NCBI RefSeq assembly: GCF_031458325.1
Contig: NZ_JAVDYG010000001.1
Coordinates: 2,914,001-2,978,000, forward strand
DNA from: Nocardioides marmoribigeumensis
GTDB taxonomy: Bacteria > Actinomycetota > Actinomycetes > Propionibacteriales > Nocardioidaceae
Reading direction: 5' to 3'
Length of the DNA: 64,000 bases
The position numbers were made by a program, and so were the translations under genes. How positions within the stretch are numbered: the first letter of the stretch is position 1; each line of letters begins with the position of its first letter. The notes beneath the pieces are model-generated. The model searched no databases. It was not told the DNA's origin and saw nothing but the letters and a program-made list of their open reading frames with translations. Of this stretch, positions 6,637 to 46,721 are shown one piece after another.

Positions 6637-6674
6637 ATTGCTCAGTAGGTATTGCCATATTCCTCCGGAGGAAA
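6637..6674. promoter_or_regulatory. Tandem operator-like palindromes upstream of the ABC transporter operon
   Basis: An AT-rich island contains ATTCCTCC|GGAGGAAA at 6659-6674, whose inner 14 bases are a perfect palindrome. A weaker copy, ATTGCTCA|GTAGGTAT, sits at 6637-6652. The centres are 22 bp apart, two helical turns. The same 16-bp pattern recurs upstream of six other operons of the catabolic island. The position is 55-92 bases before the TTG start of the ATPase gene, and also about 125-160 bases upstream of lon. The binding factor is unknown. Confidence 0.6.
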
Positions 6675-6728
6675 TACTTTTCTCGTGACGGGCACCACAG
6701 CCCGGCCCCGAGCAGTGAGGGAGGGACC

Positions 6729-8342
6729 TTGAGCGAGACGACGACCGTCGACCGGCCCATCGAGCAGATGCCGCTGGTGCGCATCGAGAACCTGTCCAAG
6801 ACCTTCCCCGGCCAGCGAGCGCTGGACCAGGTCGACCTGGACATCCGGGTCGGCGAGGTGCACGCGCTCCTCGGCCAGAACGGCTCGGGCAAGTCGACCC
6901 TGATCAAGGTCCTCACCGGTTTCCACGCCCCCGACGACGGCGTCCGGGTCAGCGTCGACGGGGCCGAGGGCGCCTTCACCCGCACCGGACCCTCGCCGCT
7001 CGACGGCGAGGTGCTCAACGTCCGCGCCGTGCACCAGCACCTCGGCCTGGTGCCGCAGCTCAGCGTCGTCGACAACGTCGCGCTGTGCACCGGCTACCTC
7101 CGCGCGCCCGGCGGCCGCATCGACTGGGCCGCGCAGGCGAGCCTCACCCGCGAGCTGCTCGCAAGGGTCGGCCTGGAAGGCCTCGACATCCACGCGGGCG
7201 TCGACGTGATCTCCCCGCTCGAGCGCACCCAGGTCGCCATCGCACGGGCCCTGCACGGCTGGAGCGAGGGCGCCCACGGGCTGCTCATCCTCGACGAGCC
7301 GACCGCCGCGCTGCCGGCCGAGCAGGCCGAGGACCTCTTCACCCTCGTCCGCCGGCTCCGCGACACCGGGGTGGCCATCGTCTACGTCTCCCACCGGCTC
7401 GACGACCTGGTCTCCATCGCCGACCACGTGACCGTCCTGCGCGACGGCCGCTCGGTCGCCACCACCTCGATGGAGGGGCTGACCCACGACGACCTGGTCG
7501 GGCTCATGCTCGGCAAGGAGGCGGCGGCCAAGGCCCACGCCGTCGTGCGCTCGCACGCCGTCGAGGACGGGCGTCCCCCGGCCGTCGTCGACGGCAAGCA
7601 CGGCCGCACCCTGCGCGTGTCGGGCCTCGTCGGCGCGGAGCTGCGGGGCCTCGACTTCACCGTCGCTCCCGGCGAGGTGGTCGGCGTGACCGGCATCGTC
7701 GGCGCCGGGCAGGACGAGCTGCCCTACCTGCTGGTCGGCGCCCGCAAGGCCGCGGCCGGCACCGTCGAGATCGACGGGACGACGTACGACGTGACGCGGC
7801 TCGACCCGCGCCGCTGCGCCGGTCTCGGTGTGGCCCTGGTGCCGGCCGACCGGGCCAACGAGGCCGTCCTGCCGCAGACCGACATCACCGACAACATCAC
7901 GCTCCCTCGCCTCCGGCTGTTCTCCAAGGGGGGCTGGCTGCGCCGCTCCTCCGAGCGTGCGGAGGCGGTGCGCTGGATCGAGCGGCTGTTCATCCAGCCG
8001 CAGGACCCGGGCAAGCTCGTCACCGAGCTCAGCGGCGGCAACGCTCAGAAGGTCGTGCTGGCCCGGTGGCTCGGGGTGGCCCGCAACGCGCTGCTGCTCG
8101 CCGAGCCCACGGCCGGGGTCGACATCGGCGCCAAGAGCCTGATCTACAGCCATCTCCGGGCCGCGGCCGCGGAGGGACTGCCCATCGTCGTGTGCTCCAC
8201 CGACGCCATGGACCTCGAGCAGCTCTGCACCCGGGTCCTCGTGCTCTCGGACGGTCGGCTCAAGGCCGAGCTCACCGGGGCCGACATCAACGAAGACACC
8301 ATCAACCACGCTGTTCTGTCCGCGACGGAGGCATCCGCATGA
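6729..8342 (+). CDS. ABC-type sugar-family importer, double ATPase subunit (RbsA/MglA type)
   Basis: The 537-residue cytoplasmic ATPase carries two fused nucleotide-binding domains, as in ribose and galactose importers. The first has a canonical Walker A GQNGSGKST, a LLILDEPTAALP Walker B, and a degenerate signature (SPLERTQ). The second has a degenerate P-loop (GIVGAGQDE) but a good LSGGNAQK signature. This asymmetry is normal for the family. The start is a TTG closely preceded by GGGAGGG; a later ATG at 6768 is an alternative. It overlaps the permease gene by 4 bases (ATGA). Although called sugar-type, relatives also import other small hydrophilic compounds, and the position at the head of an acyl-CoA catabolic island suggests a non-sugar substrate. 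Expression is probably controlled by the palindromes at 6637-6674. Confidence 0.92.
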   Translation: MSETTTVDRPIEQMPLVRIENLSKTFPGQRALDQVDLDIRVGEVHALLGQNGSGKSTLIKVLTGFHAPDDGVRVSVDGAEGAFTRTGPSPLDGEVLNVRAVHQHLGLVPQLSVVDNVALCTGYLRAPGGRIDWAAQASLTRELLARVGLEGLDIHAGVDVISPLERTQVAIARALHGWSEGAHGLLILDEPTAALPAEQAEDLFTLVRRLRDTGVAIVYVSHRLDDLVSIADHVTVLRDGRSVATTSMEGLTHDDLVGLMLGKEAAAKAHAVVRSHAVEDGRPPAVVDGKHGRTLRVSGLVGAELRGLDFTVAPGEVVGVTGIVGAGQDELPYLLVGARKAAAGTVEIDGTTYDVTRLDPRRCAGLGVALVPADRANEAVLPQTDITDNITLPRLRLFSKGGWLRRSSERAEAVRWIERLFIQPQDPGKLVTELSGGNAQKVVLARWLGVARNALLLAEPTAGVDIGAKSLIYSHLRAAAAEGLPIVVCSTDAMDLEQLCTRVLVLSDGRLKAELTGADINEDTINHAVLSATEASA

Positions 8343-9397
8343 CCACCCTGACCATCGACCGCAGGGCCGAGTGGAAGCGTCGTCTGAGCTTCTCGAACCT
8401 CAGCGTCGTCTACATCCTCGTGGCGCTGGTGGTCTTCTTCGGAGTCTGGAAGACCGACCTCTTCCTCACCTACGACACCTTCAGCGGGATGCTCAACCAG
8501 AACGCCATCCAGGCGCTGATGGCCCTCTCGCTCATCATGGCGCTGTCCAGCGGGGTCTTCGACCTCTCGATCGGCTACGTCATGAGCCTGACCTCGATGC
8601 TCACCGCCTACCTGGTCAGCCCGCAGTACGGCAACCTCCTCCCGAGCTCGGCGATCGCGATCGCGCTCGCGGTGGCGCTCCTGGCCGGCGTGGTCAACGC
8701 GATCGTCGTGGTGATCTTCAAGATCGACTCGTTCATCGGCACCCTCGCGACCGGCTCGATCTTCTACTCCGCGGCGGTCTACGTCACCGACAACGTGCCG
8801 ATCTCGGTGGGCACCTCGACGATCCGCAGCCTCGGCAGCTGGAACGTCGCGAGCCTGGGTGCCCCGGTCTTCGTGGTGGCCGTGGTGATGGTCGTGCTGT
8901 GGTATCTCATGGGCCACACGCCCACCGGCCGCGCCGTCTACGCCACCGGGCTGGGCCCGGAGGCCGCCCGTCTGGCCGGCATCCGCACCAAGCGCATCCA
9001 GTTCACCTCGCTGCTGGTCTCGGCCCTCGTCGCCGGGGTCGCCGGGGTCCTGGCGACGGCGAAGTTCAGCCAGGGCTCGGCGGGCGTCGGCGCGCCGTAC
9101 CTCATCCAGGCGTTCGCCGCGGTCTTCCTCGGCGCCACGCTGTTCCGCGGCAGCCTCTTCAACGCCGTCGGCACCGTCATCGCGGTCATCATGCTCGGCA
9201 CGATCACGGTCGGCCTGGCACTGGCCGGCGTGGTCCAGCAGTGGGTGCCCTACGCCTTCCAGGGCCTCATCCTCATCTCCGCCCTCGGCCTCGGCGGACT
9301 GCGCCGCCGGCCCAAGGCGCCGACCGCCGCGGAGGTGGAGCCCGCTCCGTCCGCGGAGGTGCCCGCCCAGCCCGACGGCGTGCCCACGCACGTCTGA
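8339..9397 (+). CDS. ABC-type sugar-family importer, permease subunit (RbsC type)
   Basis: This is a 352-residue integral membrane protein with about eight to ten hydrophobic segments. The BPD_transp_2 pattern is typical: a central SSGVFDLSIGYVMSL loop, then GRAVYATGLGPEAARLAGI, the cytoplasmic coupling region that docks on the ATPase. The charged C-terminal tail is rich in Pro and Glu. The ATG overlaps the stop of the ATPase gene (ATGA), so the two are translationally coupled. A single permease presumably forms a homodimer. The substrate-binding lipoprotein follows after 88 bases. Confidence 0.92.
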   Translation: MTTLTIDRRAEWKRRLSFSNLSVVYILVALVVFFGVWKTDLFLTYDTFSGMLNQNAIQALMALSLIMALSSGVFDLSIGYVMSLTSMLTAYLVSPQYGNLLPSSAIAIALAVALLAGVVNAIVVVIFKIDSFIGTLATGSIFYSAAVYVTDNVPISVGTSTIRSLGSWNVASLGAPVFVVAVVMVVLWYLMGHTPTGRAVYATGLGPEAARLAGIRTKRIQFTSLLVSALVAGVAGVLATAKFSQGSAGVGAPYLIQAFAAVFLGATLFRGSLFNAVGTVIAVIMLGTITVGLALAGVVQQWVPYAFQGLILISALGLGGLRRRPKAPTAAEVEPAPSAEVPAQPDGVPTHV

Positions 9398-9485
9398 CCC
9401 AGCCCGACACCGCACGTCCCCCGATCGCCCAGAGCCTCTGTGCGACACCTGTTCCGCGCACGGCGGAGCTCACCAAGGAGAGAAC

Positions 9486-10673
9486 ATGAAGATGTCCACC
9501 AGGTCCGGCGGTCTCGCCGCGGCCCTCGCCGGCTTCGCGCTCGTGCTGAGCGCCTGCTCGGCCCAGGCGCCCGCCGACTCGAAGGGCAGCGGCGACTCGT
9601 CGTCCACGTCGTCCTCCGGCGGCGACGCGCTGCCCAACACCACGGGACAGAAGACCCTGGACGCGATCGAGGCCAACACCGGCGTCGACGGGGCCAAGAA
9701 GCTGCTGGCGATGTGGACCGCGACCCCCACCACGATCGGCATCACCGAGCCGGTCAAGGGCAAGATCCCGAGCGGCAAGAAGATCGCCTTCATGAACTGC
9801 GGCGTCGAGGTCTGCATCGCCCTCGGCAAGGCCGTCAAGGAGGCCGCCACGGTGCTCGGCTGGACCGTCGAGGACGTCAACGTGGGCGCGAGCCCCGACG
9901 AGATCAGCGGCGCCTGGAACCGCGTCGCCGCCGGCGACTACGACGGCGTGATCGCCTCGGGACTGCCGAGCGTGCTGTTCGCCGACGCGGTCGACAAGCT
10001 GAAGAAGAAGGGCGTGCCGATCGCCGAGTGCTGCGTGGCCGACGACAACCCCGGCATCACCGCCATCGTGGGCGACTCCACGGTCCCGCCGACCGGCAAG
10101 CAGTACGCCGCCTGGGTCGCCGCCGACTCCGACGGCAAAGCCAACACCCTGTGGGTCGGCTCCGCGGACTTCCCGATCATCGCGACGCTGAAGTCCAACT
10201 TCGACGAGGGCATGAAGAGCTGGTGCCCCGACTGCAAGGTCGCCGACATCGACATCCCGGCCGCCGAGATCGGGACCACGATGCCGACCAAGATCGCCGC
10301 CTACGTCCGCTCGCACCCCGACGTGAACTACATCGCCCTGGGCTACGACGGCTTCGCCACCGGCCTGCCGCAGGCGCTCCAGGACGCCGGCGTGGCCGAC
10401 AAGGTGAAGTTCATCGGTGACGACGCGCTGCCCATGAACAAGCAGATGGTGATGGACGGCCAGCAGGGCGCGAGCATCGCGTTCCCGATCTACGAGGAGA
10501 TGTACGCCGCGGTCGACGCCCTCGCCCGGACCTTCGTCGGCGAGTCGGTGGAGCCCTCCCTGTCGATGATGCCCCTGCAGATCTACACCAAGGACAACAT
10601 CAACGACCCGTCGAAGTTCGAGCCGCTGGTGCCCGACTACAAGGAGCAGTTCATGAAGCTGTGGGGCAAGTGA
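9486..10673 (+). CDS. ABC importer substrate-binding lipoprotein (periplasmic-binding-protein family 4)
   Basis: The predicted 395-residue lipoprotein has an LSAC lipobox with the lipidated Cys near residue 24 and a Ser/Gly/Asp-rich linker. A two-lobed sugar-type binding domain follows, starting at SGKKIAFMNCG. Internal signatures include ASPDEISGAWNRVAAGDYDG, ECCVADDNPG and NYIALGYDG, the shape of RbsB-like proteins. Four Cys residues in the binding domain (MNCGVEVC and CPDC) are unusual for the class and could form disulfides. An AAGGAG ribosome-binding site precedes the ATG. A strong hairpin follows the stop. The ligand cannot be deduced; the genetic context points to an acid, alcohol or terpenoid-like compound rather than a hexose. 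Confidence 0.9.
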   Translation: MKMSTRSGGLAAALAGFALVLSACSAQAPADSKGSGDSSSTSSSGGDALPNTTGQKTLDAIEANTGVDGAKKLLAMWTATPTTIGITEPVKGKIPSGKKIAFMNCGVEVCIALGKAVKEAATVLGWTVEDVNVGASPDEISGAWNRVAAGDYDGVIASGLPSVLFADAVDKLKKKGVPIAECCVADDNPGITAIVGDSTVPPTGKQYAAWVAADSDGKANTLWVGSADFPIIATLKSNFDEGMKSWCPDCKVADIDIPAAEIGTTMPTKIAAYVRSHPDVNYIALGYDGFATGLPQALQDAGVADKVKFIGDDALPMNKQMVMDGQQGASIAFPIYEEMYAAVDALARTFVGESVEPSLSMMPLQIYTKDNINDPSKFEPLVPDYKEQFMKLWGK

Positions 10674-10701
10674 GCCCTCACCGCTCGAGCTGACCCGAAC
10701 C

Positions 10702-10738
10702 CGGGTCCGGCCGGCCGTCTGCACGCCGGCCGGACCCG
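10702..10738 (+). terminator. Strong GC hairpin after the ABC transporter operon
   Basis: A 14-bp perfect stem (10702-10715 with 10725-10738) encloses a 9-base loop, 29 bases after the stop of the binding-protein gene. There is no T-tract, which is common for actinobacterial terminators. It would separate transporter transcription from the acyl-CoA dehydrogenase run, or attenuate it. Confidence 0.65.
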
Positions 10739-10757
10739 CCACCACCGAAGGGGAACC

Positions 10758-12002
10758 ATGTCGCGTCCCGAGGTCGACACCGACGTCGACGAGTTCCGAG
10801 CCCGGAGTCGAGCCTGGCTCGAGTCCACCGGGCTCGACCGCAGGGATGGGCGCTGCGACGGGCGGCACGACGTGGTCTCCGTGTTCCACGACCTCCCGCA
10901 CGACGAGGAGCTCGCCCTGCTGGAGCGGCTCTGCGCCTGGCAGCGCACCAAGCACGACGCGGGGTTCGCCGCGATCACCTGGCCGGCGCCGTACGGTCCC
11001 GGGCTCTCCCCGGCGCACGAGGAGGCCTTCGTCTCCGAGGAGCTGGCCTGGGCGACCCCCGGGGCGCACGAGCTGCTCACGGTGACGCTCAACCTGGTCG
11101 CGCCCACGCTGCGCGAGCTCGCCTCGCACGACCTGTGCGCGGAGCTGGTCGGCCCGTTCCTGCGCGGGGACCAGCTGGCCTGCCAGCTCTTCTCCGAGCC
11201 GGGCGCGGGCTCCGACCTGGCCAATGTTTCGACCCGTGCGGTGCGCGACGGAGACGACTGGATCGTCACCGGGCAGAAGGTGTGGTCCTCGGGCGCGCAG
11301 TTCGCCGGGTGGGGCGAGCTGATCGCACGCACGGACCCGGCGGCCCCCAAGCACAGCGGGCTGACGGCCTTCATGGTCCCGCTCGACAGCCCGGGTATCG
11401 ACGTCCGGCCCCTGCGCCAGATGAGCGGGGGCCAGAGCTTCAACGAGGTCTTCCTCGACTCGGTGCGCATCCCGGACCGCTATCGCATCGGCGAGGTGGG
11501 ACAGGGCTGGAAGGTCGCGCTCACCACGCTCGGGTTCGAGCGCGGTGACAGCGCCAACCAGGCCCTGGTCGGCGGCGACTGGCGGCGGGCGTTCGCGGTC
11601 GCGCAGCGCACCGGCGCCGACCGGGACCCCCTCGTGCGGCAGCTCATGGCCGAGACGTACGTCGCGTGGCGGCTGGGCGCCGTCGCCTCGGCCCGCGACG
11701 AGAAGGACGAGGCCGAGGGACGCGCGTCCGGCGCGATCGGCTCCGTGCGCAAGCTGCAGTGGCTGCACCGGATGCAGAGCGTGTCCGACCTGACCCGCGA
11801 GGCGCTCGGTGCCGACCTCGCCGTCGACTCCGGGGCGCCCGACGCCTTCGAGTGGACCCAGCAGCTGCTGGGCGTGCCGGGCTACCGCATCGCCGGGGGC
11901 TCGGACCAGATCCAGAAGAACATCATCGGGGAGCGCCTCCTCGGCCTCCCCGCCGAACCCCGGACAGACCGGGACAAGCCGTGGCGGGAGACCCGACGAT
12001 GA
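10758..12002 (+). CDS. Acyl-CoA dehydrogenase (FadE type, large subunit-like)
   Basis: The 414-residue flavoprotein has the three ACAD parts: an N-terminal helical domain, a beta domain with LFSEPGAGSDLA and an FAD-binding TGQKVWSSGA strand, and a C-terminal helical domain ending RIAGGSDQIQKNIIGERLLG. It introduces an alpha-beta double bond into an acyl-CoA. Enzymes of this kind in steroid side-chain catabolism work as heterotetramers of two different ACADs. The shorter ACAD at 21248-22315 is the natural partner candidate here. The gene is preceded by GAAGGGG and overlaps the next SDR gene by 4 bases (ATGA). The substrate is unknown. Confidence 0.9.
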   Translation: MSRPEVDTDVDEFRARSRAWLESTGLDRRDGRCDGRHDVVSVFHDLPHDEELALLERLCAWQRTKHDAGFAAITWPAPYGPGLSPAHEEAFVSEELAWATPGAHELLTVTLNLVAPTLRELASHDLCAELVGPFLRGDQLACQLFSEPGAGSDLANVSTRAVRDGDDWIVTGQKVWSSGAQFAGWGELIARTDPAAPKHSGLTAFMVPLDSPGIDVRPLRQMSGGQSFNEVFLDSVRIPDRYRIGEVGQGWKVALTTLGFERGDSANQALVGGDWRRAFAVAQRTGADRDPLVRQLMAETYVAWRLGAVASARDEKDEAEGRASGAIGSVRKLQWLHRMQSVSDLTREALGADLAVDSGAPDAFEWTQQLLGVPGYRIAGGSDQIQKNIIGERLLGLPAEPRTDRDKPWRETRR

Positions 12003-12766
12003 GTGCTCATGCAGGTGTGCTGGACGGCAAGGTGGCGCTGGTCACCGGAGGCAGCCGCGGGCTCGGACGCGAGATGGTGCTGGCCTTCGCCGACGCCGGC
12101 GCCGACGTCGTGATCGCCAGCCGCAAGGTCGAGAGCTGCGAGGCCCTGGCCGAGGAGGTCTCGGAGCGGACCGGGCGCAAGGCGCTTGCCGTCGGCGCGC
12201 ATGTCGGCGACTGGTCCTCCATCGAGCACCTCGTCGACCGGGCCTACGAGGTCTTCGGCCGCGTCGACGTGCTGGTCAACAACGCCGGCATCGCGCCGAC
12301 GTACCCCAGCCTGCTCGAGGTGGGGGAGGACCTGTGGGACAAGACCTTCGCGGTCAACGTCAGGGGGCCGTTCCGCCTCGTCGCCCTCGTCGGTCCGCGC
12401 ATGCGCGAGACCGGTGGTGGGTCGATCATCAACGTCAGCAGCATCGCCTCGGTGCGCCCCGTGCCGGAGTTCCTGCCGTACGCCGCGTCCAAGGCCGCGC
12501 TCAACACGCTCACCCAGGGCTTCGCCTCGGCGTACGGCCCGACGGTGCGGGTGAACTGCCTCATGGCCGGACCGTTCCTCACCGACATCAGCTCGGCCTG
12601 GGACATGGAGGCCTTCGAGCGCGACGCCCAGCACATCCCGCTCCGGCGTGCGGGGAGGCCGGAGGAGGTCGTGGGAACGGCGCTCTACCTGGCCTCGGAC
12701 GCCTCGAGCTACACCACGGGCGTCGTCCTGCCCGTCGACGGCGGACGGTCAGCCTCTGCCTGGTGA
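11999..12766 (+). CDS. Short-chain dehydrogenase/reductase
   Basis: This is a 255-residue classical SDR: TGGSRGLG dinucleotide-binding loop, NNAG, a catalytic Ser in NVSSIAS, YAASK with the Tyr-Lys pair, and a C-terminal PVDGG. It most likely oxidises or reduces a hydroxyacyl-CoA or alcohol with NAD(P). Its ATG overlaps the stop of the upstream ACAD gene, and it is the last gene before an AT-rich promoter island, so ACAD and SDR probably form a two-gene unit. The specific substrate cannot be told. Confidence 0.9.
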   Translation: MSAHAGVLDGKVALVTGGSRGLGREMVLAFADAGADVVIASRKVESCEALAEEVSERTGRKALAVGAHVGDWSSIEHLVDRAYEVFGRVDVLVNNAGIAPTYPSLLEVGEDLWDKTFAVNVRGPFRLVALVGPRMRETGGGSIINVSSIASVRPVPEFLPYAASKAALNTLTQGFASAYGPTVRVNCLMAGPFLTDISSAWDMEAFERDAQHIPLRRAGRPEEVVGTALYLASDASSYTTGVVLPVDGGRSASAW

Positions 12767-12768: not shown

Positions 12769-12810
12769 AAAGATCATGATAAATACTTGATCTAATTCAT
12801 ACCGAGGAAT
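12769..12810. promoter_or_regulatory. Promoter island with two operator-like palindromes upstream of the CoA-transferase operon
   Basis: This AT-rich spacer between the SDR stop and the CoA-transferase start holds ATTCATAC|CGAGGAAT (12795-12810). A weaker copy, AAAGATCA|TGATAAAT, is at 12769-12784, with centres 26 bp apart. A separate perfect inverted repeat, AGATCA...TGATCT (12771-12776 and 12788-12793, 11-base spacer), overlaps them. It probably carries the promoter and operator for the long run 12847-24667. Confidence 0.55.
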
Positions 12811-12846: not shown

Positions 12847-14139
12847 ATGGAACAGCAGCTGGACCCCCGCTCGCCGGCACGCCGGAGCGGCCTGCTGTCC
12901 GGGATCCGCGTCGCCGACTTCTGCTGGATGGGCGTCGGCTCCGTGGCCACCCGCATGCTGGCCGACTTCGGTGCCGAGGTGATCAAGATCGAGGACCGCA
13001 CGCGGCTCGACATGCCGCGCCGGCTGCCGATCTACAAGGGCGACCTGCGGTCCTACGGCGAGGAGGACCCGAACCCGGACCCGAACAAGGGCGGCCTGTT
13101 CAACAACTACTGCCGCAACAAGCTCGGCGTCACGATCAACATGCGCACCCCCGAGGGCAAGGAGCTGTGCGAGCGGCTCATCGCCAGCAGCTCGGTGGTC
13201 ACCGAGAACTTCGCCCCCGGCGTGATGGAGCGCTGGGGCCTGACCTACGACACGGTCAAGGAGATCCGGCCGGACGTGATCATGGCCCGGATGAGCGGCT
13301 ACGGCCACGACGGCCCGCACAGCGGCCACAAGTCCTACGGCCCGGTGATCCAGGCGGTCTGCGGCCTGTCGTTCAACAGCGGCCTCGCCGGCCGCGAGCC
13401 CTCCGGCTGGGGCCTGTCCTACATGGACAACCAGGCGGCGTACTACAACTCCGCGGCCCTGCTGCTCGCGATCTACCACCGGATGCTCACCGGCGAGGGC
13501 GGCGAGATCGACGTCTCCGCGGTCGAGGTCGGGATCAACCTGCTCGGTCCCGACCTGCTCGACACCCTGGTCAACCAGCGGCCCAGCCGCCGGGCCGACT
13601 TCCCGCGCGGCAACCGCCTCGAGTTCGAGGGCGCCGCCCCGCACGGGGTCTACCCCGCCTCGGGTGCCGACGAGTGGGTTGCGGTCGCCGTCTTCGACGA
13701 CCGTGCCTGGGAGTCCCTGGTCGAGGTGCTCGGCAGCCCCGACTGGGCGACCGATCCGAACCTCGCCACCGTGGCGGGCCGCGTCGCCCGGCAGGACGAC
13801 CTCGACGCCCACCTGTCGCAGTGGACCAAGAATTTCGACAAGCACGACCTCATGCACCGGCTCCAGGCTGCGGGGGTCCCCGCCGGCGCCGTCCAGAACT
13901 CCCGCGACCTCGCCGAGGTCGACGCCCAGATCGCCCACCGCGGCACCTTCTTCGAGCTCGACCACCCCGTCATCGGGCCCGCGCTCTTCGAGGGCAATCC
14001 GATGAGCTTCTCCCGCACCGAGCAGCACAACTGGCGCTCCGCGCCGCTGCTGGGCGAGGACAACGACTACGTCTTCGGCGAGCTGCTCGGTCTCTCGGCC
14101 GACGAGCGCGCCGACCTCACCGACCGAGGAGCGATCTGA
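12847..14139 (+). CDS. Family III CoA-transferase (CaiB/BaiF type), subunit with catalytic Asp
   Basis: The predicted protein has 430 residues and starts at the ATG at 12847, because AAGGAG lies 5 bases upstream; an in-frame ATG at 12820 has no such site. It opens with the usual GIRVADFCWMGVGSVATRMLADFGAEVIKIE fold start. Asp194 in the SYMDNQAAYY segment sits where formyl-CoA transferase has its aspartyl-CoA-forming Asp. GEGGEIDVSAVE and a C-terminal GVPAGAVQN also fit the family. It moves CoA from a donor acyl-CoA to a free acid. It overlaps a second, divergent CoA-transferase gene by one base, so an activating heteromer is likely. Confidence 0.9.
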   Translation: MEQQLDPRSPARRSGLLSGIRVADFCWMGVGSVATRMLADFGAEVIKIEDRTRLDMPRRLPIYKGDLRSYGEEDPNPDPNKGGLFNNYCRNKLGVTINMRTPEGKELCERLIASSSVVTENFAPGVMERWGLTYDTVKEIRPDVIMARMSGYGHDGPHSGHKSYGPVIQAVCGLSFNSGLAGREPSGWGLSYMDNQAAYYNSAALLLAIYHRMLTGEGGEIDVSAVEVGINLLGPDLLDTLVNQRPSRRADFPRGNRLEFEGAAPHGVYPASGADEWVAVAVFDDRAWESLVEVLGSPDWATDPNLATVAGRVARQDDLDAHLSQWTKNFDKHDLMHRLQAAGVPAGAVQNSRDLAEVDAQIAHRGTFFELDHPVIGPALFEGNPMSFSRTEQHNWRSAPLLGEDNDYVFGELLGLSADERADLTDRGAI

Positions 14140-18487: not shown

Positions 18488-18503
18488 GAGAGAAGAGAGC
18501 ACC

Positions 18504-20878: not shown

Positions 20879-20922
20879 CGCACCACACCGACGAGCCACT
20901 CACGAACCGAAAGGCAACACCC

Positions 20923-21222: not shown

Positions 21223-21247
21223 CCGGCCGGACGAGGGAGGCACCGTC

Positions 21248-31689: not shown

Positions 31690-31726
31690 CTCGACCACCA
31701 CCTGCACCGCAGCGGAAGGACCCTCC

Positions 31727-33226: not shown

Positions 33227-33255
33227 GCAGAGCACGAACCAGGAGGGACACACCC

Positions 33256-34988: not shown

Positions 34989-34989
34989 G

Positions 34990-35297: not shown

Positions 35298-35313
35298 ATT
35301 CATCATGATAAAA
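35298..35313. promoter_or_regulatory. Operator-like palindrome upstream of the CoA ligase/GntR operon
   Basis: ATTCATCA|TGATAAAA lies 17-32 bases before the ligase ATG at 35330, just after the terminator hairpin. It belongs to the 16-bp palindrome family seen at six other promoters. The operon it would control encodes one of the two GntR regulators, which is compatible with autoregulation. Confidence 0.55.
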
Positions 35314-35329
35314 GAGGGAAGTGGACGAG

Positions 35330-39116: not shown

Positions 39117-40585
39117 CCGCCTCGCTGACCGCTTCCCTGACCGACGGCACCACCACGCTCGACCGCGACCAGGCCGAGGCCCGCCTCTACGGCGCGGTGG
39201 TCGCCCTGCGCGAGCTGACCGACGGCACGTCGGGGCGGGTCGCGGTGATGGCGCACAACTCCGTCGAGACCGTCCTCACCCACGCCGCGGTGATCCTGGC
39301 CGGGCTCTCCGCGGTGCCGGTGAGCTTCCACCTCACCGCCGGCGAGGTCGCCTACCTGCTCGAGACCTCCGGGGCGGCGCTCCTGGTCGCCGACGCCCAG
39401 ACCGCAGCGGTGGCGGCCGAGGCCGCCGCCCGCGCCGGGGGAGTGCGCGTGGTGGACACCTCGCTGCTGGCCGTCGAGGCCCAGGCGCCCGAGGACCTGA
39501 GGTCCCTGCGGCCGCGTCCGCCGATGCTCTTCACCTCGGGCACCACCGGTCGCCCCAAGCCGGTCGAGCAGCCGCCCACGATGTTCCCGCGCGTGGACAG
39601 CGTGGCCGAGCTGCTCACCGTCTTCGCGGAGAACCCGCTGGCGCAGCACCGGCCGCACCTCGTGGTCGGCCCGCTCTACCACACGGGTCCGCTCACGGCC
39701 GTGCGTCTGCTGCTCGCGGGGACGCCCCTGGTGGTGATGCCGCGCTTCGACGCCGAGGGCGTGCTGCGCGCCATCCAGGAGCACCGGATCCAAGGATCGG
39801 TGATGGTGCCGACCCACTTCTCCCGACTGCTGGCGCTGCCCGAGGACCTGCGCGCGTCGTACGACGTCAGCTCGCTGCGCGAGGTCGTGCACACCGGCTC
39901 GGCCTGCCCTGTCGACGTCAAGCGGAAGATGATCGAGTGGTGGGGGCCTGTGCTCGTCGAGGCCTACGGCGGCACCGAGGTCGGGACCACCACCAGCCTC
40001 GACAGCACGGAGTGGCTGGCCCATCCCGGATCGGTCGGACGGGCGGTGCCGCCGTTCGAGGTGCTGGTGCTCGACGAGGACGGTCGCGAGGTGCCCACCG
40101 GCGAACCCGGCCAGCTCTGCTTCCGCGACGCGACCGGCCGAGGGCTGGTCTACGCCGTCGACGGGCTCACCGGCACGACCTACGGCCCGGGTGTGTTCAC
40201 GCTCGGCGAGGTCGGCCGTGTCGACGAGGACGGCTTCGTCTGGATCACCGACCGCACGGCCGACCTGGTCGTCTCGGGCGGGGTGAACATCTATCCCGCC
40301 GAGGTCGAGCGCGTGCTGCTCGCCCACCCCGACGTCGAGGACGTCGCGGTGTTCGGGGTCCCGGTCGAGGACCTGGGCGAGGAGCTGCGGGCACTCGTGG
40401 TCGTGACGGGCGACGTCACCCCCGAGGACCTGATGGCGCTGTGCCGCTCGGAGCTGGCGGGCTTCAAGTGCCCGCGCCGGCTGGACCTGGTGGACGGGCT
40501 GCCCCGCACGACGATGGGCAAGCTGGACAAGCGCGTCCTGCGGGAGCGCTACGGCGCCGGGGTGTCGACGAGCGACCGCTCCTAG
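39113..40585 (+). CDS. Acyl-CoA synthetase-like (AMP-forming) protein
   Basis: This 490-residue ANL member has FTSGTTGRPKPVEQP, in which the second Gly and Ala of the P-loop-like motif are replaced by Pro and Val. It keeps YGGTEVGTT, WITDRTADLVVSGGVNIYPAE, and a C-terminal Lys in TTMGKLDKR. It may be a ligase with a different substrate. The start is TTG overlapping the previous stop (TTGA) with AGAAGGAG upstream. It ends the operon, and a convergent hydrolase follows 250 bases later. Confidence 0.88.
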   Translation: MTASLTASLTDGTTTLDRDQAEARLYGAVVALRELTDGTSGRVAVMAHNSVETVLTHAAVILAGLSAVPVSFHLTAGEVAYLLETSGAALLVADAQTAAVAAEAAARAGGVRVVDTSLLAVEAQAPEDLRSLRPRPPMLFTSGTTGRPKPVEQPPTMFPRVDSVAELLTVFAENPLAQHRPHLVVGPLYHTGPLTAVRLLLAGTPLVVMPRFDAEGVLRAIQEHRIQGSVMVPTHFSRLLALPEDLRASYDVSSLREVVHTGSACPVDVKRKMIEWWGPVLVEAYGGTEVGTTTSLDSTEWLAHPGSVGRAVPPFEVLVLDEDGREVPTGEPGQLCFRDATGRGLVYAVDGLTGTTYGPGVFTLGEVGRVDEDGFVWITDRTADLVVSGGVNIYPAEVERVLLAHPDVEDVAVFGVPVEDLGEELRALVVVTGDVTPEDLMALCRSELAGFKCPRRLDLVDGLPRTTMGKLDKRVLRERYGAGVSTSDRS

Positions 40586-42057: not shown

Positions 42058-42100
42058 GCATTAGACCACGGGCACACCGTCACGCGTGAAGTGTCTCCTA

Positions 42101-42148
42101 TTCATCCCCACGAATCCAAGATTTATGGCCTATTCCTCTGGATAAATA
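42101..42148. promoter_or_regulatory. Two operator-like palindromes upstream of the PHA synthase operon
   Basis: ATTCATCC|CCACGAAT (42101-42116) and ATTCCTCT|GGATAAAT (42133-42148) lie in the 207-base divergent region between the phasin gene and the PHA operon. Their centres are 32 bp apart. They belong to the palindrome family of the catabolic island, which would tie PHA formation to the same regulator. Confidence 0.55.
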
Positions 42149-42196: not shown

Positions 42197-42514
42197 GTGG
42201 GTGCACCGTGGTGGCTCCAGGCGTTCAACGCCGTCGAGGGAGCCGTCGGCCCCCGCGTGGAGGAGTTCGTGCACGGGCCGACGTTCTCCACCTCGCTCGT
42301 GGTCGTGCAGAAGGTCAAGCGCGGGATGAAGGGCCAGGTCGAGCGCCGCACCAGCCAGGTCTGGCACCTGGTCAACCTGCCGGCCGGCACCGACGTACGC
42401 CGGCTCCGCGGGCAGATCGGCGATCTGGACCACGAGGTCCGGGCGCTGCGCAGCGCTCTGGAGCGCGAGAAGCGCGCGCGGGCGCGCAAGGAACGGAGCC
42501 GGGACGATGGCTGA
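42197..42514 (+). CDS. Small PHA-synthase-associated protein, possible PhaE substitute
   Basis: This 105-residue soluble protein is encoded directly upstream of, and overlapping by 8 bases, the PHA synthase gene. The N-terminal half contains a VEEFVHGPTF segment. The C-terminal half (from about residue 70) is a strongly charged coiled coil (GQIGDLDHEVRALRSALE) with a basic tail. Class III synthases need a second subunit, PhaE (about 40 kDa), whose C-terminal part is helical; no full-size PhaE is present here. A minimal partner role is inferred from position. It has a very strong AAGGAGGAGG site before the GTG start. Confidence 0.72.
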   Translation: MGAPWWLQAFNAVEGAVGPRVEEFVHGPTFSTSLVVVQKVKRGMKGQVERRTSQVWHLVNLPAGTDVRRLRGQIGDLDHEVRALRSALEREKRARARKERSRDDG

Positions 42515-43628
42515 GACCGCCTCCGGCGCCACCACGAGCGTGCTGCGCACGCCCGCGGAGCTCGTCGACCGGATCCGACGCGACGTCGCGCGCAACGCGC
42601 TGCGGGCGCGCAACGGCATCCGCGTGGTCACCGGCGCCGGGCGCCCCGAGACGGGGCTGACCCCCAAGGACACCGTCTGGGAGCAGGGCAGCGCGACCAT
42701 GTGGCGCTACCGCAGCGACCGGGTCACGCAGGGGCCGCCGCTGCTCATCGTGTTCAGCCTGGTGTCGCAGAGCTACATCCTGGACCTCGTGCCGGGCAAC
42801 AGCTTCGTCGAGCACCTGCGGGACGACGGGTTCGACGTCTTCCTCGTCGACTGGGGGACCGCGGGCGAGCGCGAGTCGCGCAACGGCCTGGAGGACTACG
42901 CCGAGCGCCTCATCCCCGAGGTCCTCGACCGGGTCTGCGACCTGACCGGGAGCCCCGACGTCGCGCTGGTCGGCTACTGCTTCGGTGGCCTGCTCACCCT
43001 CATGGCCGCCGCTGCCGACCCGGAGCTGCCGCTGGCCAGCCTCACCACGATCGCCACCCCGGTGGACTTCACCGACGCCGGCGTCCTGACCGATGCGCTC
43101 GGGAGCGGCGACCTGTCGGTCGACGAGGCGCTGGACGAGGAGGGCAACGTGCCGCCCCACGTCCTGCTGCAGTACTTCCGGCTGATGAAGCCGACCGCCG
43201 AGCTCGCGCAGTACGCCAACATCCTCGACCGGCTCCTGGACGACGACAAGGTGGCCGCGCACCAGCTGATGACGGGCTGGGCCACGGACCACGTGCCCTT
43301 CCCGGGCCGGACCGCTCGACAGGTGGTCGACCTGCTCGTGGGCGACAACTCCCTGCTCGAGGACACCTTCCGGCTCGACGGTCGGCCGGTGTCGCTGCGC
43401 GACATCCGCGTGCCCTACCTCAACGTCGTCGCCGCTCGCGACCACATCGTGCCTCCGGCCTCGGCGCGCCCCGCGCTCGACCTGGTCGGGTCGGAGGACA
43501 AGCAGGAGCTCCTGCTCGACGCCGGCCACATCGGCCTGGCCGTCGGCCGCAAGGCCCACCAGGTCACCATCCCGCAGATCTCCGAGTTCCTGCGTGCGCG
43601 CAGCCGACCGGTGGAGGAGACCCGATGA
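42507..43628 (+). CDS. phaC: Poly(3-hydroxyalkanoate) synthase, class III PhaC type
   Basis: The alpha/beta-fold polymerase has 373 residues. The lipase-like box GYCFGG carries the nucleophile Cys158, with Asp312 in ARDHIV and His341 in AGHIGLAVG. These positions run parallel to Cys149, Asp302 and His331 of the Allochromatium class III enzyme, and the short length also fits class III rather than class I. It polymerises hydroxyacyl-CoA from the surrounding beta-oxidation genes. Overlaps with both neighbours indicate an operon. Phasin and hydrolase genes lie divergently upstream. Confidence 0.93.
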   Translation: MAETASGATTSVLRTPAELVDRIRRDVARNALRARNGIRVVTGAGRPETGLTPKDTVWEQGSATMWRYRSDRVTQGPPLLIVFSLVSQSYILDLVPGNSFVEHLRDDGFDVFLVDWGTAGERESRNGLEDYAERLIPEVLDRVCDLTGSPDVALVGYCFGGLLTLMAAAADPELPLASLTTIATPVDFTDAGVLTDALGSGDLSVDEALDEEGNVPPHVLLQYFRLMKPTAELAQYANILDRLLDDDKVAAHQLMTGWATDHVPFPGRTARQVVDLLVGDNSLLEDTFRLDGRPVSLRDIRVPYLNVVAARDHIVPPASARPALDLVGSEDKQELLLDAGHIGLAVGRKAHQVTIPQISEFLRARSRPVEETR

Positions 43629-44152
43629 GCACCATCACGACCCTGGAGCCGACCCACGCGTCCGCGCTGCGCCGCTTCTTCGACGAGCTCCCCGACGAGG
43701 ACGTCACCTCGGTCAAGGAGGACGTGCGCGACCCCCACGGTGTGGAGATCGCGGTCGCCGACGAGCACAACACCCGCTGGGTCGCCCTGGTCGACGACGA
43801 GGTCGCGGCCTACGCCTCCCTCTACCCGGGCGTCGGCCTGTCCTCCCACGTGGGCGAGGTGCGCCTGGTCGTCGGCAGCCGACACCGCCGCCGCGGCCTC
43901 GGTCGTGCCATGGCCCGCACGGTGCTCATGACCGCCCTGCGCGACGGGCTGTCCAAGCTGACCGTCGAGGTGCCCGCCGACGAGGAGTCCACCGCCGAGA
44001 TCTTCCGCCGGCTCGGCTTCGAGGGCGAGGCGCTGCTGCGCGACCACGTGCAGCACCCGGACGGACGGCTGACCGACCTGCTCGTCCTCGCCCACTTCGC
44101 CGACGAGCAGTCGTCGGTGCTGACCGGACTGGGGGTCGGCGATGACGACTGA
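43625..44152 (+). CDS. GNAT-family N-acetyltransferase
   Basis: The 175-residue GNAT-fold protein has the acetyl-CoA pyrophosphate loop HRRRGLGRAMA, a VRLVVGSR strand before it, and IFRRLGFEGEALLRDHV in the C-terminal half. The substrate is unknown. It overlaps the phaC stop by 4 bases, which is a surprising position in a PHA operon. It could acetylate a protein (acyl-CoA-responsive modification) or a metabolite. A ferredoxin gene follows 95 bases later. Confidence 0.85.
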   Translation: MSTITTLEPTHASALRRFFDELPDEDVTSVKEDVRDPHGVEIAVADEHNTRWVALVDDEVAAYASLYPGVGLSSHVGEVRLVVGSRHRRRGLGRAMARTVLMTALRDGLSKLTVEVPADEESTAEIFRRLGFEGEALLRDHVQHPDGRLTDLLVLAHFADEQSSVLTGLGVGDDD

Positions 44153-44246
44153 CCAGCTCGCCCCCACGACCTCTCTCCCGACCACTCTCATCCCCGCGAC
44201 CACGACCACGACCGACGCCGATCGGCAGAACCCAGGAGGAACGGCG

Positions 44247-44582
44247 ATGCCGACCATCACCTACATCGACCCTGACGGGGTCAAGCACGAGATCGACGCC
44301 CACGTCGGTGCCACCGTCATGGACACCGCGGTCAAGAACGGCGTGCCCGGCGTCGTCGCCGAGTGCGGCGGCTTCCTGTCCTGCGCCTCGTGCCACGTGC
44401 ACGTGGACGACGCGTGGATCGACAAGGTCGGCCGGGCCGAGGACAGCGACGACGAGGTCGAGTGCGAGCTCCTCGACGGCGCCATGGCCGAGCGCACGCC
44501 GGGCAGCCGCCTGTCGTGCCAGATCACCGTCACCGACGAGCTCGACGGCCTCCTGGTCCGCGTCGCGCCGGAGCAGTTCTGA
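44247..44582 (+). CDS. 2Fe-2S ferredoxin (adrenodoxin/putidaredoxin type)
   Basis: The predicted protein has 111 residues, starting at the ATG preceded by AGGAGGA. Cluster ligands are in ECGGFLSCASCHVH and RLSCQI, the Cys-x5-Cys-x2-Cys...Cys pattern of adrenodoxin-like ferredoxins. It carries electrons to P450s or oxygenases. Its stop and the ATG of the reductase gene share a base (TGATG), so the two form a redox pair. The only P450 in the window is at 33750. Confidence 0.93.
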   Translation: MPTITYIDPDGVKHEIDAHVGATVMDTAVKNGVPGVVAECGGFLSCASCHVHVDDAWIDKVGRAEDSDDEVECELLDGAMAERTPGSRLSCQITVTDELDGLLVRVAPEQF

Positions 44583-45811
44583 TGAGCGCGATCGTCATCG
44601 TCGGCGCCGCGCAGGCCGGCCTGCAGATCGCCGTCTCGCTGCGGGAGAAGGGCTACGCCGGCAAGGTCCAGCTCGTCGGCGCCGAGCCGCACCCGCCGTA
44701 CGCCCGCCCGCCGCTGTCCAAGGCCTACCTCTCCGGCGCGGCGACCCTCGAGTCCCTGGCCCTGCGCAACGAGGCGTTCTACACCGACCACGCGATCGAG
44801 CTGATCTGCGGCGACCGGGTGACCGACGTCGAGCTCGACGAGGGCATCGTCAGGCTGGCCAGCGGCCGCGAGCTGCCGTTCGACCAGCTCGCGCTGACCA
44901 CGGGCGCCCGCGTCGCCCGGCTCCCCGTGCCGGGCGCTGAGCTCGACGGTGTGCTCTACCTCCGTGACCTCGCCGACGCCGACCGCCTTGCGGAGCGCCT
45001 GCCGGACGCGACGAACGTCGTGGTCGTCGGAGGCGGCTTCATCGGCCTCGAGGCCGCTGCCGTCTGCCGCAACAAGGGCAAGGAGGTGACCGTCGTCGAG
45101 ATGGGCTCACGCCTCGTGATGCGCGCGGTCGCGCCGGTGGTCTCGGAGTTCTACCGCGCGGCCCACGAGCGCCGGGGCACGACGATCAAGCTCGGCCAGA
45201 CCGTGACCGCGGTCGAGGGCCAGGACGGTGCGGTGACCGGCGTGCGGCTGGACGACGGCACGCTGCTCCCCGCGGACCTGGTCCTCGTCGGCATCGGCGT
45301 GCACGCGCGCGGCGAGCTCGCCGAGCACATGGGCCTGGAGATCCAGAACGGAGCCGTCGTCGTCGACCGGCACGCGCGCACCAGCCACCCGCGGGTCGTC
45401 GCGGCCGGCGACGTCACACTGCTGCCGCACCCGTTGACCCAGGACGTGATGGTGCGGCTGGAGTCGGTGCAGAACGCCGTCGACCAGGCCAAGGTGGCAG
45501 CCGCCACGCTGATGGGCGAGGAGAAGGAGTACTCCTCCGTGCCGTGGTTCTGGACCGACCAGGACACGATCAAGCTGCAGATCGCCGGGCTCTCGACCGG
45601 GTACGACGACGTGGTGGTGCGCGGCGAGCCGGACGAGGAGAAGTTCTCGGTCCTGTACTACCGCCACGGCCGGCTGATCGCGATCGACAGCGTCAACCGG
45701 ACCCCGGAGTACCTCGCCGTGCGCCAAGGCCTAGCCAAGGGGCTCACCGTCCCGCAGGACCGGGCCGCCGACGTCGGCGTGCCGCTCAAGTCGCTCCTTG
45801 TCGAGGCGTGA
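44582..45811 (+). CDS. NAD(P)H-dependent ferredoxin reductase (FAD, putidaredoxin reductase type)
   Basis: The 409-residue flavoprotein has an N-terminal FAD-binding VIVGAAQAGLQIA (the second Gly of the usual motif is Ala), PYARPPLSKAYL, a second Rossmann motif VVVGGGFIGLEAAA followed by VVEMGSRL, and the FAD-binding Asp in VVAAGDVTLL. A C-terminal reductase domain has the PWFWTDQ motif typical of oxygenase-coupled reductases. It passes electrons from NAD(P)H to the adjacent 2Fe-2S ferredoxin. The gene ends 25 bases before the convergent GntR gene. Confidence 0.94.
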   Translation: MSAIVIVGAAQAGLQIAVSLREKGYAGKVQLVGAEPHPPYARPPLSKAYLSGAATLESLALRNEAFYTDHAIELICGDRVTDVELDEGIVRLASGRELPFDQLALTTGARVARLPVPGAELDGVLYLRDLADADRLAERLPDATNVVVVGGGFIGLEAAAVCRNKGKEVTVVEMGSRLVMRAVAPVVSEFYRAAHERRGTTIKLGQTVTAVEGQDGAVTGVRLDDGTLLPADLVLVGIGVHARGELAEHMGLEIQNGAVVVDRHARTSHPRVVAAGDVTLLPHPLTQDVMVRLESVQNAVDQAKVAAATLMGEEKEYSSVPWFWTDQDTIKLQIAGLSTGYDDVVVRGEPDEEKFSVLYYRHGRLIAIDSVNRTPEYLAVRQGLAKGLTVPQDRAADVGVPLKSLLVEA

Positions 45812-45836: not shown

Positions 45837-46661
45837 TCACCGCCAGGCGATCGGCGTCTCCATGTGGTCGGGGTGCTGGGTGCGGTAGTGCTCCACGATC
45901 GCCGCGATGTGGTCGTGCATGAGGTCGCGCGCCTTGCGCGCCCGGCCGTCGATGACGGCCACCGCGATCGCGTGGTGGTCGCTGTCGAGGTGCGGGATCT
46001 CCAGCGGGTCCATGTCCTCCACGACGTGGTCGACCACGATGTGCGTGACCGACTGCACCAGCAGGGTGGTCACCCGGTTGCCGGCGAGCGCGGCGAGCAC
46101 GGAGTGGAAGGTGTTGAGCTCCTCGAAGTGCTCGTGCTCGTCGGCGGGCTGGTGGTCGTCGAGGAACGGCGCCAGCGCGGCCGTCTTGCGTCGGCGGTCG
46201 GCGATGCGGGCCACCTTGGCCGCGATGAGGGGCTCGAGGTCGAGCCAGGTGTCGAAGACCTCGCTGTAGGTCGCGCCACTGAGGGTGTAGTACATGCTCG
46301 CCGTCCGGGCGAGGTAGCTGGCGTTGACCGGGGCGACGTAGGGCCCGCCGCCGGGCCCGCGGCGGATCGAGATGAGGCCCTGCACCTCGAGCAGCCGGAG
46401 ACCCTCGCGCAGGGACTCGCGGCTGACGGAGTACTGCGTGAGCATGTCGGACTCGGCCGGCAGCCGGTCGCCCACCTTGAGGTCGGCCGAGATGATGTCG
46501 CGCACGACCGAGGCCGCCACCAGCTCCGACGCCTTGGGCGGTGCGATGCTCGCCGCCGCCTCCGCGTCACGCACGGGCCGCAGGTTGCCCCCCGGCTTGT
46601 AGATGATCGGGAGCCCCTTGCGGGGGCCCGGCAGGTCCGGCCTGTCGGTGGTCGTGGTCAT
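45837..46661 (-). CDS. GntR-family regulator, FadR/FCD subgroup
   Basis: The protein has 274 residues, the same length as the GntR protein at 36802, with an N-terminal extension of about 45 residues, a winged helix (RESLREGLRLLEVQGLIS and the wing RRGPGGGPYV), and an FCD ligand domain with HSVLAAL and LMHDHIA. Its recognition-helix and wing residues are nearly identical to those of its paralogue, so both could bind the same operators. The gene is divergent from the crotonase operon; a palindrome copy lies in the spacer 45 bases from its start. Confidence 0.92.
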   Translation of the reverse strand: MTTTTDRPDLPGPRKGLPIIYKPGGNLRPVRDAEAAASIAPPKASELVAASVVRDIISADLKVGDRLPAESDMLTQYSVSRESLREGLRLLEVQGLISIRRGPGGGPYVAPVNASYLARTASMYYTLSGATYSEVFDTWLDLEPLIAAKVARIADRRRKTAALAPFLDDHQPADEHEHFEELNTFHSVLAALAGNRVTTLLVQSVTHIVVDHVVEDMDPLEIPHLDSDHHAIAVAVIDGRARKARDLMHDHIAAIVEHYRTQHPDHMETPIAWR

Positions 46662-46705
46662 CTCGTCACCTCTCCCGTCGGCGTGCGGTCGTCAGTCTAG
46701 GTGGG

Positions 46706-46721
46706 AATCGGTATGAGGAAT
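46706..46721. promoter_or_regulatory. Operator-like palindrome overlapping the crotonase start
   Basis: AATCGGTA|TGAGGAAT (minus-strand ATTCCTCA|TACCGATT) lies between the divergent GntR gene and the crotonase-containing operon and covers the ATG at 46713. Binding here would block a leaderless start directly. It is one of the weaker copies, with one good half-site. Confidence 0.45.

What the first reader, a model, noticed from the sequence alone, without database searches (positions are those of the whole stretch)
6637..46721. A recurring 16-bp palindrome upstream of seven operons suggests one regulon spanning the island
Ten copies of a motif close to ATTCMTCM|KGAKGAAT lie only in AT-rich intergenic islands: 6637, 6659, 12769, 12795, 29473, 30748, 30770, 35298, 42101/42133 and 46706 (42101 and 42133 are two sites). 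They precede the ABC importer, the CoA-transferase/aldolase run, the qor-SDR-pntAB/XRE pair, the P450 operon, the ligase operon, the PHA module and the crotonase operon. Such placement is hard to explain by chance, although the AT-rich islands raise the background.
Basis: partly seen in the sequence, partly recalled or inferred. Interest (0 to 1): 0.82.

Follow-up and report, generated by a model that had tools for sequence, protein, structure and literature searches.

The report
GntR/FCD regulon of an acyl-CoA island
A short palindrome repeated across this island is very probably the shared docking site of a GntR/FCD-type gene switch that controls most of a catabolic gene cluster, and the same switch-and-site pairing is found in many other actinobacteria.

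Summary
The palindrome is real and is very probably a regulon operator. Sites 42100 (8.7) and 46706 (6.6) are weak, so the crotonase operon is not an established target. Likely binders are two GntR/FCD paralogues inside the island (36802-37626+, 45837-46661-). In 294 genomes of the family, the island's marker CoA-transferase occurs in 9; all 9 carry a near FCD homologue and the refined motif, against the motif in 4 of 285 others. Near FCD homologues in named genomes, 18 of 26 non-training loci have a strong site, against 0 of 18 farther FCDs. At the CoA-transferase operon the site fills a 17-bp promoter spacer in 8 of 8 family genomes where that gene leads, which suggests repression; only 2 of the window's 9 strong sites show this. 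The operator lacks the usual FadR-subfamily GT/AC core and resembles LutR's TCATC-N1-GATGA. Exceptions: Gordonia/Williamsia, G256, G672.

The parts
6637..6652 (.). operator 1a, ATTGCTCAGTAGGTAT, 22 bp from 1b
   Evidence: PWM 16.5 bits; local shuffles 0 of 2000
6659..6674 (.). operator 1b, ATTCCTCCGGAGGAAA, in the spacer of TTGCCA-17-TACTTT before the ABC importer operon
   Evidence: PWM 21.7; promoter geometry
6729..12766 (+). target operon: sugar-type ABC importer (ATPase, permease, binding protein), acyl-CoA dehydrogenase, SDR
   Evidence: gene calls, NCBIfam/Pfam
12769..12784 (.). operator 2a, AAAGATCATGATAAAT
   Evidence: PWM 17.2
12795..12810 (.). operator 2b, ATTCATACCGAGGAAT, in the 17-bp spacer of TTGATC (12787-12792) and TAGAGT (12810-12815); same architecture in 7 relatives
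   Evidence: PWM 19.4; geometry
12847..24667 (+). target operon: two CoA-transferases (the first BbsEF-like), two thiolase/DUF35 pairs, acyl-CoA dehydrogenases, APH-fold kinase, zinc ADH, SDR, SnoaL
29473..29488 (.). operator 3, ATTTACCATGAGGAAT, between divergent qor-SDR-pntAB (-) and XRE-hydrolase (+)
   Evidence: PWM 21.3
24674..29432 (-). target operon: quinone oxidoreductase-like, SDR, transhydrogenase PntA and PntB
29523..30749 (+). XRE-type regulator (116 aa) and alpha/beta hydrolase; possible target
   Evidence: Pfam HTH_3, Abhydrolase_1
30748..30763 (.). operator 4a, AATCATCCTGAGCATT, 22 bp from 4b
   Evidence: PWM 19.3
30770..30785 (.). operator 4b, ATTCATCCGAAGGATT, right arm running into a TTGACG -35-like box
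   Evidence: PWM 19.9; sequence
30877..35241 (+). target operon: SDR, aldehyde dehydrogenase, SnoaL, CYP101/P450cam-like P450, 4Fe ferredoxin
35298..35313 (.). operator 5, ATTCATCATGATAAAA, before the ligase operon that contains FCD1
   Evidence: PWM 20.3
35321..40585 (+). target operon: acyl-CoA ligase, FCD1, two further ligases
36802..37626 (+). FCD1: GntR/FCD regulator, candidate repressor (P0001)
   Evidence: Pfam GntR and FCD; 43% identical to FCD2
42100..42115 (.). weak operator-like site 6a, ATTCATCCCCACGAAT
   Evidence: PWM only 8.7; local shuffles 11 of 2000
42132..42147 (.). operator 6b, ATTCCTCTGGATAAAT
   Evidence: PWM 20.9
42197..45811 (+). target operon: small protein, PhaC-like hydrolase, GNAT, 2Fe-2S ferredoxin, ferredoxin reductase
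45837..46661 (-). FCD2: GntR/FCD regulator, candidate repressor (P0002)
   Evidence: Pfam GntR and FCD; homologues co-occur with the motif
46706..46721 (.). unsupported weak site, AATCGGTATGAGGAAT, between FCD2 and the crotonase operon
   Evidence: PWM 6.6; 16 background places in 400 kb score 6 or more; local shuffles 4 of 2000

Best explanation
The palindrome ATTCMTC-N2-GAKGAAT is the operator of a local GntR-family repressor with an FCD ligand domain. It is encoded twice in the island (FCD1 inside the ligase operon, FCD2 beside the crotonase operon). Dimers bind single or paired sites (most often 22 bp, two helical turns, apart) that lie in or next to the promoters of six operons for uptake, P450 oxidation, CoA activation and beta-oxidation of a still unidentified carboxylic or alicyclic substrate, and block RNA polymerase. 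A pathway acid or acyl-CoA binds the FCD domain and releases the DNA. Shown by computation: the sites, their confinement to the island (strict pattern genome-wide, PWM on a 400-kb sample), their conservation, their co-occurrence with the FCD clade, and the promoter geometry at part of the sites. Inferred: binding, repression, cooperativity, the ligand, and which paralogue acts where.
For: (1) Out-of-sample PWM: 9 window sites at 16.5 bits or more, none above 11.1 in 400 kb of the same genome. (2) In 294 genomes of the family the marker CoA-transferase (E<=1e-100) is in 9, all 9 have an FCD homologue at 150 bits or more (a tenth such FCD genome is G245), and all 9 have WTTCMTCATGAKGAAW with up to 1 mismatch, against 4 of 285 others, Fisher p=1.8e-14. 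(3) In relatives sites stand between FCD and the CoA-transferase operon (7 of the 8 relatives that have it), or before P450 or ABC genes. (4) Near FCD homologues in named genomes, mostly of other families, 18 of 26 non-training loci have a site of 15 bits or more, against 0 of 18 farther FCDs. (5) G245 has the FCD and PWM sites, among them 17791 (L092) and 14199 (L093) at over 20 bits that were not in the training set, but no CoA-transferase at E<=1e-100, so the motif follows FCD rather than that gene. (6) Found through the CoA-transferase and not through FCD, all 11 marker genomes other than that hit list's repeats (9 in the family, 2 more in the phylum sample) have a near FCD homologue. (7) Operator inside a 17-bp -35/-10 spacer at the CoA-transferase operon in 8 of 8 family genomes where that gene leads; over all sites of 12 bits or more 13 of 63 and, in independent loci, 9 of 63, against 11 of 4574 AT-rich random positions; TTGnnn-17-TAnnnT also at L149, L151 and L152. 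(8) LutR, a GntR-type repressor, uses TCATC-N1-GATGA (passages of PMC11734750), the same half-site. (9) The island's XRE regulator has no convincing homologue in 42 loci of relatives.
Against: The pattern of point 2 was refined on sites from these same relatives, so 9 of 9 is not an independent result; the 4 of 285 background rate is. G245, the tenth near-FCD genome, has no match to that pattern. Gordonia and Williamsia FCDs (54-57% identity, 5 loci) have no site of 15 bits; one reaches 14.1, and none has the CoA-transferase in the fetched flanks. G256 (39% FCD) has no site in the 20 kb fetched. G672 carries the CoA-transferase and two FCDs but one 13-bit site in about 40 kb. L145 (gene near the locus edge), L150 (best 14.7) and L157 lack strong sites. 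Only 2 of the window's 9 strong sites show the spacer geometry, and the two sites before G688's CoA-transferase do not. FCD2's own upstream region holds only the weak 46706. No binding or expression data.
Confidence: 0.82

Rival explanations
1. The palindromes are a by-product of AT-rich promoter islands (UP elements, -10 boxes, GAGGA ribosome-binding sites) without a shared regulator.
For: All strong sites lie in AT-rich promoter DNA, and the right arm GAGGAAT looks like a Shine-Dalgarno stretch. A loose pattern with up to 1 mismatch occurs in 25 of 39 relatives, so the bare consensus alone is not specific.
Against: AT-rich background of the same genome gives 0 of 4333 positions at 12 bits or more against 9 of 793 in the window. 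Local shuffles reach the score 0 of 2000 times for each of nine sites. Sites recur at the same promoters in relatives; column-permuted PWMs average at most 0.11 hits per locus.
Confidence: 0.03
2. The operator is bound by the XRE-type protein (29523-29873) beside site 29473.
For: An operator stands directly before its gene (29473, 21.3 bits), as in autoregulation.
Against: tblastn at E<=1e-3 finds no homologue in 42 loci of relatives save one 34% 59-residue hit in L084 (E 7.6e-4), while many of these loci hold sites. These loci were chosen through FCD, so their FCD content is by design; but genomes found through the CoA-transferase also all have FCD.
Confidence: 0.05
3. FCD activates rather than represses, or does both depending on site position.
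For: Site 4b and P450 promoters of relatives abut a TTGAC box, and 7 of the window's 9 strong sites do not show the spacer geometry. E. coli FadR is known to do both (recalled).
Against: In 8 of 8 family genomes the CoA-transferase operator occupies the promoter spacer, where a bound dimer would most simply occlude polymerase.
Confidence: 0.2
4. FCD1 and FCD2 have split the sites between them and answer different ligands, so the island holds two overlapping regulons.
For: Two paralogues at 43% identity. The window's sites differ at the centre (CCGG, CATG, ACCG), while the relatives' training sites favour CATG. G110, G672 and G688 also hold two FCDs.
Against: The recognition-helix stretch is nearly the same (GRESLREAL, SRESLREGL), and I found no site subgroup that maps to either gene.
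Confidence: 0.35

Closest known systems
LutR of Bacillus subtilis (GntR-type repressor of lactate genes)
   Same: Operator half-site: TCATC-N1-GATGA (PMC11734750, two passages) against TCMTC-N2-GAKGA here; a repressor of catabolic genes.
   Different: Spacer one base longer here, flanking ATT/AAT arms are part of the motif, and the regulon spans a six-operon island; the paper says LutR sites lie downstream of the promoters.
FadR subfamily (FCD-type C-domain) regulators as reviewed by Suvorova et al. 2015
   Same: GntR wHTH plus FCD domain; two-base central spacing and double sites in divergons occur there too (PMC4494728, abstract and sections 5, 10, 17 seen).
   Different: The usual NyGTM-N0-1-KACNy core is absent: GT/AC is replaced by TC/GA. 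HTH position 28, usually Arg, is A, S, P, N or G in the 32 nearer homologues and S or A in the two window FCDs. The paper itself lists other exceptions (NanR, BioR, FarR).
Benzylsuccinate beta-oxidation (bbs) genes
   Same: The first CoA-transferase's best solved relative is a benzylsuccinate CoA-transferase subunit (9fn0, E 2e-71). One thiolase matches the BbsB model and a solved benzoylsuccinyl-CoA thiolase subunit, with DUF35-type partners.
   Different: Here with a P450cam-like P450, ferredoxins and an ABC importer; none of the 58 window proteins scanned was named benzylsuccinate synthase. The BbsB score is far below NCBIfam's cut-off (162 against 750 bits).

Membership tests
GntR-family FCD (FadR-subfamily) regulator | N-terminal GntR winged helix (PF00392) | tested here: met
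   E 7.6e-13 (FCD2) and 3.9e-11 (FCD1), above the gathering score
GntR-family FCD (FadR-subfamily) regulator | C-terminal FCD domain (PF07729) | tested here: met
   E 1.5e-9 (FCD2) and 4.8e-14 (FCD1), above the gathering score
GntR-family FCD (FadR-subfamily) regulator | Binds DNA as a dimer, ligand-released | not testable with these tools
   No binding assay; only dyad symmetry of sites is seen
Canonical FadR-subfamily operator class | GT...AC core, NyGTM-N0-1-KACNy | tested here: not met
   PWM consensus GTTATTCCTCATGAGGAATAAC has TC/GA at these places; consensus from PMC4494728 section 5
LutR-type operator | TCATC-N1-GATGA | tested here: not met
   Half-site agrees, but the spacing is N2 in the PWM; published form from PMC11734750 passages
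LutR orthologue | Lactate utilisation genes as targets | tested here: not met
   Targets are CoA-transferase, thiolase, P450 and ABC genes; none of the 58 window proteins scanned was named as a lactate-utilisation protein
Regulon (shared operator, several operons, conserved) | Sites before several operons, absent from matched background, conserved in relatives | tested here: met
bbs-type beta-oxidation pathway | BbsEF, BbsG, BbsH, BbsCD and BbsAB set acting on benzylsuccinate (set recalled) | tested here: inconclusive
   BbsEF-like and BbsB-like proteins found; substrate unknown

The most novel reading that the evidence does not exclude
A widespread actinobacterial clade of FCD regulators, mostly marked by a RGPGGGP wing (29 of 32 nearer loci) and without the usual specificity arginine, has its own operator class (ATTCMTC-N2-GAKGAAT). 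It serves as dedicated regulator of an undescribed BbsEF/thiolase-DUF35/P450 pathway, and in Gordonia and Williamsia the same clade appears to have moved to another operator and other genes.
Probability: 0.55. Interest if true: 0.62.

Novelty: new member of a known kind. Interest (0 to 1): 0.5.

Why it matters
It turns an anonymous 40-kb island into one co-regulated pathway with a candidate regulator and operator, so its inducer, and through that the pathway's substrate, can be sought directly. It also shows an operator outside the GT/AC rule of the FadR subfamily together with a residue change that may bear on it, which makes the specificity code testable.

Tried and rejected
The AT-rich-artefact reading was tested with an own-genome background, AT-matched positions and local shuffles, and rejected. 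The XRE protein as binder was tested by conservation and judged unlikely. Sites 42100 and 46706 were kept as weak, not counted as operators. A loose pattern at 1 mismatch matched 25 of 39 relatives, too unspecific to count with. Paper searches: GntR/FCD with Nocardioides (0 papers), Nocardioides cluster terms (1), LutR (2 held, 1 listed), motif strings (4, unrelated by title), FadR subfamily with catabolic clusters (7), FCD motif papers (20), bbs in actinobacteria (55 held, 15 listed). From these I saw titles and abstract starts, and opened only PMC11734750 (passages) and PMC4494728 (abstract, sections 5, 10, 17). No title or abstract start names this operator; most papers were not opened, and subscription papers and regulon databases were not searched, so absence from print is not shown. 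Structure prediction was not run.

Selection and dropped rows: training began with 34 matches of up to 2 mismatches in L077-L095 (nine genomes; counted's listing); 8 with flank GC above 0.60 and 1 duplicate were dropped, leaving 25. Some of the 8 may be real, and the filter tilts the PWM to AT-rich flanks. The search pattern came from the window, so the training is independent in sites, not in shape. The refined pattern was drawn from the same relatives that it then finds. Of the 50 loci, six lie in training genomes and were left out of the 26. Several test loci share a contig (L140/L154, L142/L146, L150/L153) or are close species, so Fisher values overstate independence. At 12 bits instead of 15 the counts are 20 of 26 and 1 of 18.


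Full report
Observation. The eleven coordinates were read directly. Two are off by one (42100 and 42132 are the true starts). By a simple consensus several copies look poor: 12769 does not match ATTCNTCNNGANGAAT even with three mismatches, and 6637, 30748 and 46706 need three. A better test is a matrix that has never seen the window. I took loci around homologues of the island's GntR/FCD proteins in ten genomes of the same family, collected palindromes in nine of them (the tenth, G256, had none in its 20 kb), and built a symmetric 22-bp PWM from 25 sites. In 400 kb of the same genome (20 stretches of 20 kb) the best hit is 11.1. Among positions in 100-bp contexts of GC 0.60 or less, the background has 0 of 4333 at 12 bits or more and the window 9 of 793. 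Exhaustive pattern searches of the genome agree: up to one mismatch, 4 of 4 places are in the window; up to two, 8 of 22; for ATTYMTCMKGAKRAAT all 6 places with up to two mismatches, and 10 of 26 with up to three. The reversed control patterns give 10 and 16 places. Seven of the 14 two-mismatch places outside the window were held as loci; they score at most 9.8 bits and lie in long open frames.

What the sites stand before. Gene calls and domain searches give these groups: ABC importer with an acyl-CoA dehydrogenase and SDR (sites 6637, 6659); a long run of two CoA-transferases, two thiolase/DUF35 pairs, acyl-CoA dehydrogenases and an APH-fold kinase (12769, 12795); qor-SDR-pntAB divergent from an XRE gene (29473); SDR-aldehyde dehydrogenase-SnoaL-P450-ferredoxin (30748, 30770); ligases with FCD1 inside (35298); a PhaC-like hydrolase with ferredoxin and reductase (42132, perhaps 42100). 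The crotonase/CoA-transferase operon has only the weak 46706, so six groups are supported, not seven.

Which regulator. The island codes for two GntR/FCD proteins, 43% identical; the next matches to FCD2 in this genome have E-values of 1e-9 or worse. In the draw of 294 family genomes the first CoA-transferase is present in 9 at E<=1e-100; all 9 have an FCD homologue scoring 150 bits or more, as has one further genome, G245. All 9 contain WTTCMTCATGAKGAAW with up to one mismatch, as do 4 of the other 285, and G245 does not (Fisher p=1.8e-14). That pattern was refined on sites from these relatives, so the background rate is the informative half. Maps show the site between FCD and the CoA-transferase operon in 7 of 8 relatives, and sites before P450 or ABC genes. 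G245 has PWM sites, some not used in training, without that CoA-transferase. A scan of named genomes brought 50 FCD loci. Of 26 nearer ones not used in training, 18 carry a site of 15 bits or more, in several within a few hundred bases of the FCD gene; they include Prauserella, Amycolatopsis, Thermomonospora, Nocardia, Rhodococcus, Streptomyces, Georgenia, Frankia and Desertimonas. Of 18 farther FCDs none does, one reaching 12.4. The XRE protein has no convincing homologue in 42 loci of relatives.

Results against. Five Gordonia or Williamsia loci with 54-57% identical FCDs lack strong sites; they also lack the CoA-transferase in the fetched flanks. One has a variant at 14.1 bits, and by eye three other Gordonia loci hold related but diverged palindrome-like stretches upstream of FCD. 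In a sample of 396 genomes of the phylum, searched with the CoA-transferase at E<=1e-120, both hits other than the window's own have FCD homologues on the same contig. G688 has 14 sites of 12 bits or more (10 of 15 or more) in 40 kb, but G672 has a single one of 13. G256, L145, L150 and L157 also lack strong sites. So the pairing is strong but not universal.

Mechanism. At the CoA-transferase operon the palindrome lies in the 17-bp spacer between a TTGA-type -35 and a TA-type -10 in 8 of the 9 family genomes; in the ninth (G220) that gene is inside an operon. TTGnnn-17-TAnnnT also surrounds the sites upstream of that gene in L149, L151 and L152, but not in G688. Over all sites of 12 bits or more a stricter form of this geometry holds for 13 of 63 in the window and relatives and 9 of 63 in independent loci, against 11 of 4574 random AT-rich positions. 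In the window itself 2 of 9 strong sites show it (6659, 12795); 29473, 35298, 42132 and the rest do not. Neighbouring sites within 60 bp are 22 bp apart in 7 of 30 cases, the commonest spacing, as expected for dimers on one face of the helix; some of these come from close relatives. I infer repression by occlusion, with release by a pathway metabolite on the FCD domain.

Comparison with the known. The FadR-subfamily operator consensus is NyGTM-N0-1-KACNy (PMC4494728, sections 5, 10 and 17 seen). Here GT/AC is TC/GA. That paper reports that Arg at HTH position 28 prefers G/C at site positions 6/14; in my alignment position 28 is A, S, P, N or G in the 32 nearer homologues and S or A in the window's FCDs, a plausible but untested explanation. 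The farther group (RGRGGGA wing in 15 of 18) mostly lacks the Arg too, so this residue alone does not define the operator. LutR's TCATC-N1-GATGA (PMC11734750, two passages) is the closest published site I found. The enzymes recall benzylsuccinate beta-oxidation joined to a CYP101-like P450; the substrate is not known.

Verdict. A real, conserved, island-wide regulon of a GntR/FCD clade: new as a member, ordinary in kind, with an unusual operator and an open question of substrate.

Noticed in passing
window 12820-12847: The longest ORF start of the first CoA-transferase (ATG 12820) lies at or before the transcription start expected from TAGAGT (12810-12815); ATG 12847, with an upstream GAAGGAG, is the likelier start.
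   Followed up: partly
window 24674-27667: A transhydrogenase (PntA, PntB) lies in the regulated island, which suggests the pathway has a special NADPH/NADH demand.
   Followed up: no
L127, L129, L131, L132, about 9860-9890: Gordonia FCD homologues have a different palindrome-like stretch upstream (in L132 ATTCGTCCGTACGAAT), as if the operator had changed within the clade.
   Followed up: partly
L158-L174: A second FCD group, most of it with longer matches (about 960-1155 bases), mainly in Mycobacterium, Nocardia and Frankia relatives, has mostly an RGRGGGA wing instead of RGPGGGP and no copy of the motif above 12.4 bits; its operator is unknown to me.
   Followed up: no
window 54212-57634 (-): A 1140-aa protein with six fibronectin type III stretches and a reprolysin-like metallopeptidase match, outside the regulon.
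   Followed up: no
window 15332-18487: Two thiolase/DUF35 pairs sit side by side; relatives differ in whether the second pair is kept next to the first.
   Followed up: no
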